NCBI GenBank assembly: GCA_017882505.1 | Contig: JADGPJ010000006.1 | Coordinates: forward strand, 1 to 54,478 | Length of the DNA stretch: 54,478 bases | Direction: 5' to 3' | From: Solirubrobacterales bacterium | Lineage (GTDB): Bacteria > Actinomycetota > Thermoleophilia > Solirubrobacterales > 70-9 | In this document: in pieces, positions 1-4,178 of the stretch | Layout of the letters: every line of letters starts with the position of its first letter | Numbering within the stretch: the stretch's first letter is position 1 | Made by a program: the position numbers and the translations under genes | Notes under the pieces: model-generated | The model's database searches: none | Told to the model about the DNA's origin: nothing | What the model saw: only the letters and a program-made list of their open reading frames with translations

Positions 1-114
1 GGGTACGACCATGCGAGTGCGGGGCGGATCAGACACGGGGCCAGGTTCCACCGGTTCAGGGACGACAAAGCGCCGGGCGAGTGCAAGTTCGAGCAGCTGG
101 ACGAAGGGGCTTAG
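1..114 (+). CDS. ATP-dependent DNA ligase, C-terminal tail (partial)
   Basis: An open frame enters from the left edge and ends at TAG 112-114, giving 37 residues. The segment RHGARFHRFRDDKAP followed by GECKFEQL resembles the extreme C-terminus of the OB-fold domain of actinobacterial ATP-dependent ligases, where a basic arginine-rich strand is followed by an acidic-Cys-x-(F/Y)-(E/D)-Q-L ending. Such ligases seal nicks in duplex DNA, usually in repair. The stop overlaps the stop of the convergent radical SAM gene. Only the last residues are visible, so the identification rests on a short motif. The neighbouring SOS-boxed repair-type gene makes a repair ligase plausible. Confidence 0.6.
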   Translation, partial: GYDHASAGRIRHGARFHRFRDDKAPGECKFEQLDEGA

Positions 115-1814
115 AAGAGAGGCTGCTGGGCGCTCTCTTCGGAGGAGCTTCCGGCCGAGCCGGGGCGGTCGACCAGGGCCGACCTGAGACGGTTTCGGCC
201 CCAGCCTCGGAGGGCCCGGGTCGCATGTTTGCGCTGGGCTGGCCGCATGTAAGCGCGGTTGGAGTACAGCTGCTCGTATTTCGAGAGGAGGTCGGGGCGT
301 TTTTCTTCCAGCCAGGCGAAGAAGACGTCCTTGACCTCGTCGCGGAGGTGGAGGGCGACGCCGCCGAGGAAGGTGGCGCCGGCTTTCTTCGCTCGCTCGA
401 CGATCGGGCGGACCTGGTCGGGGCTGTCGTTGATGCCGGGCATCAACGGAGCGATGAGGACGCCGGAGTCGATGCCGCGCCGGCGCAGCTCGGCGACGGC
501 GTCGAGGCGGGCAGCGGGGCTCGGGGTGTGCGGCTCGGTCGCCCGCCAGGCGTCCTCGTCGAGGGTCGGCACCGAGAGGTTGACCGAGACCGGCAAGCCC
601 GCCTTCGCCATCCGCTCGTAGATCTTCACGTCGCGCATCGCCAGCGGCGACTTGGTCAGCACCGAGACCGGCGTGTCCGCCGCCTCCAGGGCCTCGAGGA
701 TCTCCGGCATCATCCGGTAGCGGCTCTCGACCCACTGGTAAGGGTCCGTGTTCGTCCCCAGCGCCACCAGCTCGCGCTTCCAGCTGGGCCGCGCCAGCTC
801 CGCCCGCAGCAGCTCCGGCAGGTTGACCTTGACGACGATCTCGCGCTCGAAATCCCGCCCCGCGTCGAAGCCGAGATAGGTGTGGGTGCGACGAGCAAAG
901 CAGTTGTGGCTGACGACGCCGTTTGCAATGAAGTCGCCGGTGCCGGTGGTGATGTCGTACATCCGGATCCGGCGACCGAGCGGTTCGATCGCGACGACGC
1001 CGAGCTTCGCCTGGGAGCCGCTGCAACTCCCCTCCGCATCGAAGATGCCCGCCAGGAACCCTCGGGACCACTCGTCGCTTGGCGACTGTGGCCAACGGAT
1101 TAGCTCCCGGACCCGATCGACCCCTTCATGCGGGTCCGCCAAGGCAAGCCGAAAGCGATGTACGTCAGAGGCCGACCGCCCGGGTCGGACATACGAGTAG
1201 GAGCCCACGTGCCCGTCTCCGCGAATCATCCCGCGGAGATATCCGCGCCGATATTCGGGCGACTCATTGATCGCAGGCCCGAGGTCTCCAATACCCATCA
1301 GCTTGCTATTGATCGTCAGGTGGGGGCGCTGCAAGCGGCCGTGTTCCGCTCCGACCACGAACCTCCATCCCCTCCTCGTCAAGAAACGATGATCGCCGCT
1401 CGCGATCAACTCGGTCCCGTCTTCGAGCACGACTCGGTAGGCCGTCTTGCGCGTCGTCCAATGCGCACGAACCTGGGTCGCCTCGTAGCGTCGATAAGAG
1501 CCGCGACGAACCGTCCCGTAGATCGCGTCTCCGACCCGAACCTCTTTCAAGGGCCGCGTGGTCCCGTCCGCCATGAGGATTGCCGTCTCGCCCGATAGAC
1601 AGTAAACGCACGCATGACTGCATCCCCTGTAGGGGTTGATCGTGTAGTCGAAGCCGTAGCGGCCGCCGGCGACATGGTTGAGCGCGGACCGGGCCCGAAC
1701 CTCGTGGAAGTTGACCCCCATCGCCTCCGGCGCGTCGAAGGTCCGCACCACCGAGCCGTCGCCGACGCCGGGCAACCGCAGGTCGTTCTCGACACGTTGT
1801 TCGTCCCATCTCAT
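111..1814 (-). CDS. Rv2578c-family radical SAM protein interrupted by an intein
   Basis: This belongs to the SplB/COG1533 branch of radical SAM enzymes (DNA photoproduct lyase relatives). I start it at ATG 1814 (MRWDEQ), the usual N-terminus of the family; an upstream ATG at 1832 is possible. The Fe-S motif is CSHACVY, then a 233-residue intein, then CFARRTH, so the intact CxxxCxxC forms only after splicing. Spliced, the protein is about 334 residues. Its downstream half carries typical family blocks such as GTNTDPYQ and LIAPLMPGINDS. The last five residues are QQPLF, close to the QL(S/D)LF sliding-clamp binding motif. A LexA-type box lies directly upstream. The substrate is unknown; DNA repair is inferred from family, box, C-terminus and the neighbouring ligase. 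Confidence 0.92.
   Translation of the reverse strand: MRWDEQRVENDLRLPGVGDGSVVRTFDAPEAMGVNFHEVRARSALNHVAGGRYGFDYTINPYRGCSHACVYCLSGETAILMADGTTRPLKEVRVGDAIYGTVRRGSYRRYEATQVRAHWTTRKTAYRVVLEDGTELIASGDHRFLTRRGWRFVVGAEHGRLQRPHLTINSKLMGIGDLGPAINESPEYRRGYLRGMIRGDGHVGSYSYVRPGRSASDVHRFRLALADPHEGVDRVRELIRWPQSPSDEWSRGFLAGIFDAEGSCSGSQAKLGVVAIEPLGRRIRMYDITTGTGDFIANGVVSHNCFARRTHTYLGFDAGRDFEREIVVKVNLPELLRAELARPSWKRELVALGTNTDPYQWVESRYRMMPEILEALEAADTPVSVLTKSPLAMRDVKIYERMAKAGLPVSVNLSVPTLDEDAWRATEPHTPSPAARLDAVAELRRRGIDSGVLIAPLMPGINDSPDQVRPIVERAKKAGATFLGGVALHLRDEVKDVFFAWLEEKRPDLLSKYEQLYSNRAYMRPAQRKHATRALRGWGRNRLRSALVDRPGSAGSSSEESAQQPLF
903..1601 (-). other. Intein with truncated LAGLIDADG endonuclease
   Basis: The intein begins with Cys in CLSGETAILMADGTTRPL (splicing block A) and ends with GDFIANGVVSHN followed by extein Cys, the canonical His-Asn/Cys C-terminal junction. 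Block B is visible as ELIASGDHRF. Two LAGLIDADG-like helices are present, YLRGMIRGDG and FLAGIFDAEGS, only about 61 residues apart. Only about 20 residues separate the second helix from the C-terminal splicing block (MYDITTGTGDF). At 233 residues it is shorter than typical endonuclease-bearing inteins of about 300 or more, so the second half of the endonuclease appears deleted. Splicing residues look intact; homing activity is probably lost. Confidence 0.9.
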
Positions 1815-1815
1815 A

Positions 1816-1829
1816 CGAACATACGTTCG
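1816..1829. promoter_or_regulatory. LexA/SOS box upstream of the radical SAM gene
   Basis: The plus strand reads CGAAC-ATAC-GTTCG, a perfect dyad with the GAAC-N4-GTTC core of Gram-positive and actinobacterial LexA sites. It ends one base before the ATG at 1814, so bound LexA would cover any leaderless start. It matches the Bacillus-type consensus CGAACRNRYGTTYC at 13 of 14 positions on either strand. Confidence 0.75.
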
Positions 1830-1854: not shown

Positions 1855-2340
1855 CTAGACGCTGGAGCCGGTCTCTTCCCGCTTGTAGGTCTGGAGCTGG
1901 CCGAGGGCTTTGGCCCGCGCCTTCGCCCGCAGCGGCGGCAGCAGCGCGACCAGATTGCCGGTCGGTCCCAGCGCCTGTCTCGCCCAGCGGCGAAAGTCGA
2001 AGTCGTCGACATGGTCGGCGATCAGGCCATCGGCGAAGCGGAACTTCGCCTGGACGTCGTTGACGACCGGGCGTCCGGTGGAGAACGTGTAGCGGGCGAT
2101 CCAGTGGGCCGAGCCGGTCTCATCCTCCGCCTCGTGCTCGCGCAGCTCGATCTTCAGATCGGTGACGCGGCCGGTCAGCATCCGCCACATCGTGCCGATG
2201 TCGTCGCCCTCGAGGTCGCCGAAGGCGGGGTCGCGAAAGTGGGCACCGGGCGCGTAACAGGCGGTCATCGCGGAGCCGTTGCCTTCGCCGAACGCCGTGT
2301 AGAGGCGCTCGATCGTCTCGCGGTTCGCGTCGGCGGGCAC
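1855..2340 (-). CDS. SnoaL/NTF2-like family protein
   Basis: This is a 161-residue protein with the cone-shaped NTF2-like pattern: an N-terminal helix (ETIERLYTAFGEGN), then YAPGAHFRDPAFGDLEG, an IGTMWRMLTG helix and later strands ending in KFRFADGLIADHVDDFD. These sequences match SnoaL-like polyketide cyclase/ketosteroid isomerase-fold proteins, many of which have no known substrate. After the fold ends near residue 125 a basic tail (RAKARAKALGQLQTYKRE) follows. It lies just upstream of the radical SAM gene on the same strand, about 40 bases away, but the SOS box between them suggests separate control. No enzyme activity can be assigned. Confidence 0.75.
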   Translation of the reverse strand: MPADANRETIERLYTAFGEGNGSAMTACYAPGAHFRDPAFGDLEGDDIGTMWRMLTGRVTDLKIELREHEAEDETGSAHWIARYTFSTGRPVVNDVQAKFRFADGLIADHVDDFDFRRWARQALGPTGNLVALLPPLRAKARAKALGQLQTYKREETGSSV

Positions 2341-2356: not shown

Positions 2357-2824
2357 CTATCTAGCCGGCAACCGGCCGGAGATGACGTAACGGAGCACGT
2401 CGACGACCTGCTCGGCGGTGCGGGCCGTCGCCTGCGCGGCGCGGTCGACCTCCTTCAGCGCGTGGTCGAGATCGGCCTCGTGGAGGGTGATCGTCGGCTT
2501 GCCGAGAGCCGCCGCGTAGCCGGCGTCGAAGGCGGCGTTCCACTGGCGGTACTTGTCGCCGAAGCGGACGACGACGAGGTCGGCGGCCCGGATCAGCGTC
2601 TGGGTGCGGATCGCGTTGACGCCGGCGCCCTTGTGGTCGCGCCAGAACGCCTCGCCCTCCTCCCCCAGAGTGCCGGTGCCGGCGTCATCGGAGGCGGCGT
2701 GGTCGGTGACCGGCGCCGAGAAGGAGACCGGGAGCCCCGCCTCGCGCACTCCCGATTCGACCCGTTGACGCCAGTCGGAGTGGATCTCTCCCGAGAGGTA
2801 GACGCTCCAAGTGCGCTCCGTCAC
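2357..2824 (-). CDS. ytoQ: YtoQ family protein
   Basis: The protein is 155 residues and opens with TWSVYLSGEIHSDWRQRV, the signature of the YtoQ family, which has a nucleoside 2-deoxyribosyltransferase-like Rossmann fold. Further family blocks are VNAIRTQTLIRAADLVVVRFGDKYRQWNAAFD and GYAAALGKPTI. I place the start at GTG 2824, which lies 15 bases after the dcd stop; the longer open frame would run through dcd. The biochemical role of YtoQ is not established. Its fold and its coupling to dCTP deaminase suggest nucleotide or deoxyribonucleotide metabolism, which is inference. Confidence 0.85.
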   Translation of the reverse strand: MTERTWSVYLSGEIHSDWRQRVESGVREAGLPVSFSAPVTDHAASDDAGTGTLGEEGEAFWRDHKGAGVNAIRTQTLIRAADLVVVRFGDKYRQWNAAFDAGYAAALGKPTITLHEADLDHALKEVDRAAQATARTAEQVVDVLRYVISGRLPAR

Positions 2825-2838
2825 GGGCGAATCCCAGG

Positions 2839-4020
2839 TCAGGCCGCGCCCGCGGTCTGCTCTTTGAAGTGCTTGCTCAGCATCGTCACCTGGCCCTGGT
2901 AATTGGAGCCGAGGCTGGCTCCGTAAAGGCGCTCGGCGGGGGCCTCCATCCATTCCAGCCCCAGCTTGCAGACCGGCTGGCGGTGCTCGACCATGAACGG
3001 CACGTCGCGGGCGCGAACCTCGAGCGCCGCGCGACTGCCGTGGTGAGCGCCCTCGGGGTCATAACCGAAGCCGGGGTCGAAGAAGCCGGCGTAGTGGGTG
3101 CGCAGCTCGCCCGCGGTCGGGTCGTAGGCCATCATCTCGGCGGCGATCTGGGGTGGGATGCAGACGCCCTCGGCCGACAGCAGCAGGTAGAAGATTTCGG
3201 GCTCCAGCACGACCCGCCCGCCCGGCTCGGGATAGACCGGGTCCCAGAAGTCGGTCCAGCGGTAGGCGCGGACGCGGGAGAGGTCGACCGGGAGGCTGTT
3301 CTTCTTCGCCCGGTAGCCGACGGTGCGATCCCCGGGCCCGGAGAGATCGAGGCTGAGGAAGAGGCCGTCGGAGAGCGCCAGCTCGGAATGGCCGAGGGGC
3401 TCGGAACCCAGGTAGAGCAGCGGCGACTGGTCCTGCAGACCGCGGATCTGCCCGTCGCTCAGCCGCACCTCGCCGCGGGCCAAGCGCAGCTGGTTCAGGG
3501 AGAGACCGGTCTTGACCTGGATCGCGAAGGAACGGGGGACGACCTCGAGGTAGAGCTTGCCGTGGTAGCCGGCGCGGATGTCGTCGAAGCGGTGGTGGCG
3601 GTCGGTGATGACCCTGGTGAAGACGTCGAGCCGGCCGGTGGAGCTCTTCGGGTTCGCCTTCGCGCGCACCTCCTCGGGCAACGCCAGCTCCTCGATCAAC
3701 GGCACCAGGTACGGCCGGTCGCGCTCCAGCACCGCGCCGTCGCGGAGGTCCACCTTCTGGAAGGCGAGGCCATCGACCTTCTCCTCGACCGTCGAGTCGA
3801 CATCGGGCAGGAAGGAGCAGCGCAGCGCCCAGGCGAAGTCGCCGAGGCGAAGGTCGATGCTTGCGGGCTGGATCGCCTCCGGCCGGATCCGGTAATCGCC
3901 CGAGCTGACCCACTCGCGCTCGATCGCCTGGTTGAGAGCCTGCGACGGAAAGACGCCGGCGCTCGCGCCGAGCTGCGGCGCACCCAGCACCGACGCCCCC
4001 GCGCTTTGCGGCTCGTTCAT
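2839..4020 (-). CDS. dcd: 2'-deoxycytidine 5'-triphosphate deaminase (long form)
   Basis: This enzyme converts dCTP to dUTP, feeding dTMP synthesis. The protein is 393 residues, about twice classical Dcd, and matches the long two-domain form found in some bacteria. The first domain carries QPASIDLRLG (51-60) and PKSSTGRLDVFTRVITD (124-140), the substrate-binding and catalytic region of the dUTPase/Dcd superfamily, then GKLYLEV. A second, more divergent copy of the fold occupies the C-terminal half. I start at ATG 4020 (MNEPQSAG). The frame stays open further upstream, but that stretch crosses a tRNA gene and cannot be coding. ytoQ follows 15 bases downstream, suggesting an operon. Confidence 0.86.
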   Translation of the reverse strand: MNEPQSAGASVLGAPQLGASAGVFPSQALNQAIEREWVSSGDYRIRPEAIQPASIDLRLGDFAWALRCSFLPDVDSTVEEKVDGLAFQKVDLRDGAVLERDRPYLVPLIEELALPEEVRAKANPKSSTGRLDVFTRVITDRHHRFDDIRAGYHGKLYLEVVPRSFAIQVKTGLSLNQLRLARGEVRLSDGQIRGLQDQSPLLYLGSEPLGHSELALSDGLFLSLDLSGPGDRTVGYRAKKNSLPVDLSRVRAYRWTDFWDPVYPEPGGRVVLEPEIFYLLLSAEGVCIPPQIAAEMMAYDPTAGELRTHYAGFFDPGFGYDPEGAHHGSRAALEVRARDVPFMVEHRQPVCKLGLEWMEAPAERLYGASLGSNYQGQVTMLSKHFKEQTAGAA

Positions 4021-4091
4021 CCAGCAGAGATTATTCGCCGCGCCTCGGCGGTGCCGAGGTGGGGCGTCAAGGCGAATTCGAGCAGCTCCAG

Positions 4092-4178
4092 CGGAGGGGG
4101 TGGGATTCGAACCCACGAGCGCCTTGCGACGCCAACAGTTTTCGAGACTGCCCCGTTCAACCGCTCCGGCACCCCTCC
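4092..4178 (-). tRNA. tRNA-Ser(CGA)
   Basis: The minus strand folds as a type II tRNA. The acceptor stem is GGAGGGG/CCCCTCC. The anticodon arm is GCAGT-CTCGAAA-ACTGT with anticodon CGA, followed by a long variable arm and a T arm with GGTTCGAATCC. The discriminator base is G, as usual for serine tRNAs, and CCA is not encoded. It is 87 nt long and lies upstream of dcd on the same strand. Confidence 0.95.

What the first reader, a model, noticed from the sequence alone, without database searches (positions are those of the whole stretch)
111..1829. SOS-boxed radical SAM protein with a clamp-binding-like C-terminus
The sequence shows a perfect GAAC-N4-GTTC dyad (CGAACATACGTTCG) abutting the start codon, a protein of the SplB/Rv2578c radical SAM branch, the C-terminus QQPLF close to the sliding-clamp motif QL(S/D)LF, and a convergent gene that looks like an ATP-dependent DNA ligase tail. 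From memory, M. tuberculosis Rv2578c is also among genes reported with an SOS box; I could not verify this. Together these suggest a LexA-controlled, replication-clamp-tethered DNA repair radical SAM enzyme of unknown lesion specificity.
Basis: partly seen in the sequence, partly recalled or inferred. Interest (0 to 1): 0.72.

Follow-up and report, generated by a model that had tools for sequence, protein, structure and literature searches.

The report
SOS-induced, clamp-tagged radical SAM enzyme
This bacterial iron-sulfur enzyme gene sits under the DNA-damage switch, ends in a tag that looks made for docking on the replication clamp, and is interrupted by a self-splicing insert, which points to a damage-response enzyme whose target is still unknown.

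Summary
Window 111-1814 (-) encodes an Rv2578c-family radical SAM protein. Its GAAC-N4-GTTC box is not significant alone (39 of 100 shuffles match), but lies at the start of 146 of 171 scanned loci, against 0 of 171 for each of two control patterns. In this genome such boxes also precede lexA, uvrA and an imuB-like/dnaE2-like pair. The C-terminal Q-x-x-L-F is kept in 151 of 176 complete ends (shuffle mean 0.8), often as QLSLL or QLTLL; nine alphaproteobacterial PA0069-type homologues end alike. SOS control of this wider group is already in print; two searches found no report of the clamp motif. Only the three cluster cysteines are conserved, so a classical spore photoproduct lyase is unlikely. 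LexA binding here, clamp binding, splicing, repair and lesion are inferred, not shown.

The parts
111..1814 (-). Radical SAM protein of the Rv2578c family, 567 aa precursor including the intein (alternative in-frame start ATG at 1832)
   Evidence: NF038136 605.6 bits, NF038135 363.7 bits (both below curated cut-offs), PF04055 57.1 bits over its cut-off 29.5
1816..1829 (.). LexA (SOS) box CGAACGTATGTTCG, positions -2 to -15 from the ATG; overlaps the usual ribosome-binding position
   Evidence: exact dyad; GAAC-N4-GTTC near the start in 146 of 171 scanned loci, the window's own included
903..1601 (-). Intein, 233 codons, residues 72-304 (Cys1 ... His-Asn), between Tyr71 and the +1 residue Cys305
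   Evidence: TIGR01445 28.9 bits (cut-off 24.5) and TIGR01443 18.5 bits (cut-off 15.6); aligned to full-size inteins
1029..1238 (-). Remains of the LAGLIDADG homing endonuclease: from motif LRGMIRGDG to motif LAGIFDAEG, with in-frame losses between and after them compared with 340-355 aa relatives
   Evidence: PF14528 LAGLIDADG_3 26.6 bits over cut-off 22.5
1599..1622 (-). Cluster cysteines Cys65 and Cys69 (CSHACVY) followed by the intein Cys1 (Cys72); in the precursor Cys1 occupies the third position of CxxxCxxC
900..902 (-). Cys305, first C-extein residue; would become the third cluster cysteine after splicing
114..128 (-). C-terminal QQPLF, beta-clamp-binding-like motif
   Evidence: C-terminal motif in 151 of 176 complete ends, shuffle mean 0.80, max 4
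1..114 (+). Convergent gene, last 37 codons of an ATP-dependent DNA ligase; cut by the contig end
   Evidence: NF006078 40.4 bits; found in 7 of 80 order-level loci

Best explanation
This is a LexA-repressed radical SAM enzyme of the Rv2578c/PA0069 ('SplB-like') group. After DNA damage LexA is cleaved and leaves the box next to the start codon; the precursor is made; the intein splices itself out and joins CSHACVY to CFAR, which creates the CxxxCxxC motif that holds the [4Fe-4S] cluster. A flexible tail ending in QQPLF then docks on the sliding clamp and brings the enzyme to stalled or repairing replication forks, where it acts by SAM-derived radical chemistry on a DNA lesion. Shown from sequence: the box and its conservation, the regulon context, the tail's conservation, the intein anatomy. 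Inferred: LexA binding here, splicing, clamp binding, repair. The lesion is unknown; the classical spore photoproduct is unlikely because no fourth cysteine is conserved.
For: Box: 146 of 171 scanned loci (80 of 84 order-level, window's own included; 66 of 87 phylum-wide; 19 of 24 phylum-survey families have it in at least one member), 0 of 171 for the reversed and for the swapped-arm pattern, 1 of 171 inside the gene. Offsets fall in all three frames, 69/36/30 (boxes of the first count), so DNA rather than protein is conserved. Own genome: the strict box lies 67 bases before lexA (TIGR00498, 232.1 bits) and 14 bases before an imuB-like ORF followed by a dnaE2-like ORF, the same spacing as here; GAACATCTGTTC lies 33 bases before a uvrA ORF. 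Published: vnz_31145 'Radical SAM protein' 19.97-fold up with mitomycin C and a LexA ChIP signal in S. venezuelae (PMC9380542, section 7); predicted LexA sites at splB in alpha/beta-Proteobacteria (PMC3323433, passages) and Bacteroidetes (PMC8565304, passages). Tail: 151 of 176 complete ends, shuffle mean 0.80; at 127 exact ends -2 is L in 123, -1 is F 86, L 26, I 10; pentapeptide (QLSLL) and hexapeptide-like (QLDLGL, QLALDL) forms; 0 of 33 other gene-like ORFs of the window. Nine alphaproteobacterial homologues end QLSLL (two), QLRLL, QLSLF, QLTMF (two), QYSLF, QLRLF, QGELF, with GTTC-N7-GTTC upstream in 6 of 8 scanned. Residues 305-333 of an inteinless relative have pLDDT under 50.
Against: No binding, induction or activity was measured. 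The box is absent in 25 of 171, among them 11 of 11 of branch f20, and from this genome's recA. Genome-wide the loose dyad is only 27 against 18 for the control pattern. The tail pattern was widened after seeing the ends; the first, narrower pattern gives 143 of 176. Families f43 and f46 lack the terminal motif (0 of 2, 0 of 3). Such tails could serve another partner or a protease. The imuB-like and dnaE2-like ORFs of this genome show no C-terminal motif of this type. The window protein scores below the NCBIfam cut-offs. The Streptomyces box in print is degenerate and at -61. The main text of a M. tuberculosis mitomycin C study has no mention of Rv2578c or of radical SAM (PMC8151990, term search), and that of a P. 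aeruginosa SOS review none of PA0069 (PMC13114513, term search). The structure model is weak around the cluster loop (residues 64-89 under 50).
Confidence: 0.66

Rival explanations
1. It is a classical spore photoproduct lyase (SplB) that reverses thymine dimers, SOS-controlled.
For: SplB-like naming in print (PMC3323433, PMC9380542, PMC12924846, passages).
Against: Only the three cluster cysteines are conserved in 115 aligned inteinless proteins; that SPL needs a fourth Cys is recalled. No PDB chain matches the 25-sequence family profile at E up to 1. PMC12924846 gives 17.6% identity of a Streptomyces member to B. subtilis SplB (passage).
Confidence: 0.12
2. It is SOS-controlled but acts on something other than DNA, for example a protein or tRNA; the tail only brings it to the fork or binds a different partner.
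For: Radical SAM chemistry is diverse; none of the passages I opened shows a substrate for this family; damage regulons also contain non-repair genes (PMC9380542, section 7).
Against: Clamp-like tail kept in branches with different LexA motifs fits a DNA-bound substrate better.
Confidence: 0.25
3. The C-terminal Q-x-x-L-F is a degron or adaptor-binding tag, not a clamp motif.
For: It is the exact C-terminus in 127 sequences, where C-terminal degrons lie.
Against: In some members it is followed by further residues (QLSLLP, QLTLALD, QLALDLTG, QPTLFDRP) and takes the hexapeptide-like form; the conserved Q fits the clamp motif as recalled.
Confidence: 0.1
4. The box is coincidental sequence near a constitutive start.
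For: In this window alone a match is expected 0.45 times.
Against: 146 of 171 against 0 of 171 for each control pattern.
Confidence: 0.02

Closest known systems
NF038136 intein-containing Rv2578c family radical SAM protein / NF038135 Rv2578c family (NCBIfam)
   Same: Same host family; NF038136 is named for an intein and is the best match of the window protein
   Different: Window protein scores below both cut-offs (605.6 of 700; 363.7 of 430), which may be due to its shortened intein
PA0069 family radical SAM (NF033668)
   Same: Homologous core (S. meliloti member: hhalign probability 100 over 241 columns) and clamp-like C-terminus
   Different: No match in the N-terminal part; upstream site of the form GTTC-N7-GTTC (alphaproteobacterial LexA motif, recalled)
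Spore photoproduct lyase SplB
   Same: Radical SAM, SplB-like naming in print, DNA-repair association
   Different: No conserved fourth cysteine; no PDB sequence match of the family profile
Pyrococcus abyssi MoaA intein
   Same: Cys at -3 and catalytic Cys1; splicing blocked by oxidation (PMC3922620 and PMC10663303, passages); that MoaA is a radical SAM enzyme is recalled
   Different: Different host; here the redox response is untested
SOS proteins with C-terminal clamp motifs, such as E. coli Pol II (recalled, no call)
   Same: LexA-controlled, extreme C-terminal QxxLF-like motif
   Different: Polymerase, not a radical SAM enzyme

Membership tests
Rv2578c family radical SAM (NF038135/NF038136) | Score over the curated cut-off | tested here: not met
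   363.7 of 430 and 605.6 of 700; they are the two best matches nonetheless
Rv2578c family radical SAM (NF038135/NF038136) | CxxxCxxC cluster motif and conserved core residues | tested here: met
   Cys65, Cys69 and, after splicing, Cys305; NPYRGC, GTNTDPYQW and TKSPL shared with relatives
LexA regulon | LexA-type box at the promoter, conserved in relatives and shared with lexA | tested here: met
LexA regulon | LexA binding and damage induction | not testable with these tools
   reported for a Streptomyces radical SAM gene in PMC9380542, orthology not checked
Beta-clamp-binding proteins | Conserved QxxL[F/L] or QLxLxL motif (recalled) in a flexible region | tested here: met
   151 of 176 complete ends; low-confidence tail in the model of a relative
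Beta-clamp-binding proteins | Physical binding to the clamp pocket | not testable with these tools
   dnaN present in the genome; no complex modelled
Spore photoproduct lyase | Conserved fourth cysteine for hydrogen transfer (recalled) | tested here: not met
   no such column in 115 sequences; next Cys columns 37 and 29 of 115
Inteins (class 1) | Cys1, block B, C-terminal His-Asn and +1 Cys | tested here: met
   TIGR01445 and TIGR01443 over cut-off; block B reads SGDH where TxxH is usual; VVSHN followed by C. Splicing itself not tested
Inteins (class 1) | Intact homing endonuclease (not required for splicing) | tested here: not met
   233 aa against 340-355 in full-size relatives; motif spacing 61 instead of about 100, and loss after the second motif
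MoaA-type redox-controlled intein | Cys at -3 and Cys1 | tested here: met
   Cys69 and Cys72; it follows from the cluster motif, so it is not independent evidence
MoaA-type redox-controlled intein | Disulfide that blocks splicing | not testable with these tools
   needs expression of the precursor

The most novel reading that the evidence does not exclude
A two-lock DNA-repair enzyme. SOS induction makes a precursor in which the intein's catalytic Cys1 stands in for the third cluster cysteine of CxxxCxxC. Oxidation (a Cys69-Cys72 disulfide) or a cluster built on Cys1 holds splicing; return of reducing conditions frees it, and only then is the oxygen-sensitive enzyme completed and carried by its clamp tag to damaged forks for radical-based direct reversal of a lesion not handled by known repair.
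Probability: 0.17. Interest if true: 0.88.

Novelty: new variant of a known kind. Interest (0 to 1): 0.72.

Why it matters
Direct reversal of DNA damage by radical SAM chemistry is, as far as I recall, established only for spore photoproduct. An enzyme group that bacteria with different LexA motifs appear to keep under SOS control, with a clamp-docking signature in Actinomycetota and Alphaproteobacteria, could be a second such enzyme in growing cells, placed at the fork. The clamp tag gives a handle to find its substrate, and the intein site offers a natural test of redox-controlled activation of an iron-sulfur enzyme.

Tried and rejected
Conserved partner: the convergent ligase was found in 7 of 80 order-level loci (an eighth tblastn hit, L071, is a distant match on the other strand; some loci end early); not used as evidence. 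recA as regulon member: no box. First box count (131 of 171) used a window that ended too early; one search showed boxes just outside it in families f10, f15, f16 and f19, and recounted boxes and controls with the wider window. Upstream motif hunt in branch f20: nothing convincing. PDB sequence search with the family profile: 0 hits; with the window protein alone 19 weak hits, best E 0.0072, in the intein part of the protein. Fold comparison and a model of the intein-bearing precursor: machine busy or library absent. Phage relatives (10 records): distant, not followed. Promoter scan 1700-2100: no sigma-70-type match. Literature: Rv2578c with SOS and LexA 0 papers; PA0069 with LexA 0; clamp-binding motif with radical SAM 0; spore photoproduct lyase with sliding clamp and SOS 3 papers, two listed, neither opened; Rv2578c alone 2 papers. 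PMC2897130, opened for the SOS box, has no occurrence of 'Rv257'.

Full report
What is there. The gene runs on the minus strand from ATG 1814-1812 to a stop at 113-111 and encodes 567 residues. Its two best NCBIfam matches are NF038136 'intein-containing Rv2578c family radical SAM protein' (605.6 bits, cut-off 700) and NF038135 (363.7 bits, cut-off 430); it falls short of both cut-offs. Pfam Radical_SAM passes its cut-off (57.1 bits). The 37 codons at 1-114 (+) match the end of an ATP-dependent DNA ligase profile.

The box. CGAACGTATGTTCG lies at 1829-1816 on the gene's strand, one base before ATG 1814. In this window alone it is not remarkable: expectation 0.45, 39 of 100 shuffles with at least one. 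I gathered relatives: 61 genomes including the window's own (42 with a match at E up to 0.001, some of them weak or intein-only), 80 loci from a species-level genome collection, the best of 128 found, and 296 genomes drawn over the phylum (111 with a match), of which 90 places were read as loci. After removal of rows with identical first 200 or last 60 residues, 179 of 200 loci remained, the window's own among them; 171 had enough upstream sequence. The exact dyad GAAC-N4-GTTC lies near the start in 146 of 171: 80 of 84 order-level and 66 of 87 phylum-wide, with at least one case in 19 of 24 phylum-survey families. Two control patterns gave 0 of 171 each, and a stretch inside the gene gave 1 of 171. 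My first count, with a narrower window, was 131 of 171; I widened the window after reading the upstream sequences of misses. The 25 misses include 11 of 11 scanned members of family f20. On the first count the boxes sit at offsets in all three frames (69, 36, 30), so they are conserved as DNA.

Is it a LexA box here? In the window's genome the strict form CGAAC-N4-GTTCG occurs at six places against two for the reversed control pattern. One is this gene. One lies 67 bases before a lexA ORF (TIGR00498, 232.1 bits). One lies 14 bases before an imuB-like ORF, followed by an ORF that I read as DnaE2 from its N-terminus; the imuB-like ORF has only a weak profile match (DNA polymerase IV, E 3.1e-4; none in Pfam) and the DnaE2-like ORF was not profile-tested. 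To the other three strict sites I could assign no target. A dyad outside the strict form lies 33 bases before a uvrA ORF (partial in the locus, 696.2 bits). recA has none. Genome-wide the loose dyad is found 27 times against 18 for the control.

Published support. In S. venezuelae, vnz_31145 'Radical SAM protein' is up 19.97-fold with mitomycin C and has a LexA ChIP value of 1.31 in Table 1; the authors compare it with enzymes that repair UV cross-links (PMC9380542, section 7 read). I did not check its sequence, and the box they print (TCGACCGTTCGCTC at -61) is degenerate. Predicted LexA control of splB was reported for alpha- and beta-Proteobacteria (PMC3323433, passages) and Bacteroidetes (PMC8565304, passages); PMC3765255 links SplB-like proteins to ImuB-C operons, and the word clamp does not occur in its main text (term search). 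So SOS control of the wider group is not new. Against: the main text of PMC8151990 (M. tuberculosis, mitomycin C) has no mention of Rv2578c, linB or radical SAM, and that of PMC13114513 (P. aeruginosa SOS) none of PA0069.

The tail. The protein ends ESAQQPLF. With the first pattern, Q-x-x-[LIM]-[FLIMW] within three residues of the end, 143 of 176 complete ends match (78 of 87, 25 of 30, 40 of 59). With a pattern widened to the hexapeptide form after seeing the ends, 151 of 176 match; 1,000 shuffles of the last 40 residues give a mean of 0.80 and a maximum of 4, and 19 of 24 phylum-survey families have it in at least one member. Where the motif is the exact end (127 sequences), Q is in all 127 by construction, -2 is L in 123, -1 is F 86, L 26, I 10, and -3 is S, T, R or A in 109. 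Endings include QLSLL, QLTLL, QPTLF, QLDLGL and QLALDLTG. None of 33 other gene-like ORFs in the window (chosen by third-position GC) has it; 4 of 243 flanking ORFs do, and by their endings all four are pieces of this same gene. The residues from -45 to -7 are 81% P, G, A, S, R, T, E, K, D and Q, and the last 29 residues of an inteinless relative are predicted with pLDDT under 50; that model is modest (mean pLDDT 70.0) and also weak at residues 64-89, the cluster loop. That QL[SD]LF and QLxLxL are forms of the clamp motif is recalled, not from a call.

Beyond the phylum. Homologues of the PA0069 type from nine alphaproteobacterial plasmid records end VQLSLL (two), AQLRLL, DQLSLF, DQLTMF (two), GQYSLF, DQLRLF and QGELF. 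The form GTTC-N7-GTTC, which I recall as the alphaproteobacterial LexA motif, lies upstream in 6 of the 8 that my script could scan; L233 was not parsed there, nor were L243 (Aeromonas) and L246 (Gemmatirosa). Three clostridial homologues end EQLSFF, EQLGF and QQSLFD, only the last of which fits the pattern. Arthrobacter L237 ends QEPLF and has no exact box. The core of the order-level alignment and of the S. meliloti protein align over 241 columns with probability 100.

The intein. Residues 72-304 (window 903-1601) are an intein: TIGR01445 28.9 bits and TIGR01443 18.5 bits, both over their cut-offs. It sits exactly at the third cysteine of CxxxCxxC. Fifty-seven inteins at this site, the window's included, were extracted, 151 to 355 residues long. 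Full-size ones mostly carry LAGLIDADG-like motifs at about 121 and 221; the window's has them at 121 and 182 and lacks most of what follows, so the endonuclease is degenerate while the splicing ends are kept. Close relatives without the intein exist (L036, 87% identity in the best segment). In the precursor the intein's Cys1 takes the third cluster position, with Cys69 at -3. The P. abyssi MoaA intein has a Cys-3/Cys1 disulfide that can control its activity (PMC3922620, passage), and oxidation blocks its splicing (PMC10663303, passage). That the window intein behaves alike is inference.

What it is not. Among 115 aligned inteinless proteins (110 from the actinomycetotal loci, 5 of the PA0069 type) only the three cluster cysteines are conserved; the next Cys columns reach 37 and 29 of 115. 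The fourth cysteine that spore photoproduct lyase needs (recalled) is therefore missing, and PMC12924846 reports 17.6% identity between a Streptomyces member and B. subtilis SplB and calls a link to DNA repair speculative (passages). No PDB chain matches the family profile at E up to 1. I read the family as a distinct SOS enzyme with an unknown lesion.

Judgement. LexA control: very likely. Clamp docking: likely. DNA repair at the fork: more likely than not. Classical SplB activity: unlikely. Redox-controlled splicing: possible. No report of the clamp motif was found in the searches, within the held library only.

Noticed in passing
G000 contig C12, locus L002, bases 1-1344: The same bin holds a second copy of the locus end (radical SAM C-terminus ending QLTQPKLF, 78% identical, and the convergent ligase), probably from a related strain in the assembly.
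   Followed up: partly
window 2839-4074 (-): Two-domain dCTP deaminase-like protein (DCD_N and DCD_C) upstream on the same strand, a nucleotide-pool gene near the SOS gene.
   Followed up: no
window 2357-2953 (-) and 1855-2340 (-): A YtoQ-like ORF (my reading, no profile) and a SnoaL_2 protein (PF12680 64.2 bits) lie between the deaminase and the radical SAM gene.
   Followed up: no
window 4091-4178 (-): tRNA-Ser (cga).
   Followed up: no
L016, L174, L183, L189, L070, L167, L151, L056: Natural mini-inteins of 151-156 residues at the same site, with the endonuclease gone; possible compact splicing tools.
   Followed up: no
G000 contig C74, locus L224 around 1500-1530: Two GAAC-N4-GTTC dyads 17 bases apart upstream of a 205-residue ORF of unclear function; a candidate LexA target.
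   Followed up: no
L195-L205 and L207 (family f20): A branch with the clamp-like tail (QPSLFD, QPTLFD and the like) in 12 of 12 but no GAAC-N4-GTTC box in 11 of 11 scanned; another LexA motif or none.
   Followed up: partly
Streptomyces members of the family (paper only): A Streptomyces phage, Samy, integrates inside the Rv2578c-family gene (PMC12924846, passages).
   Followed up: no
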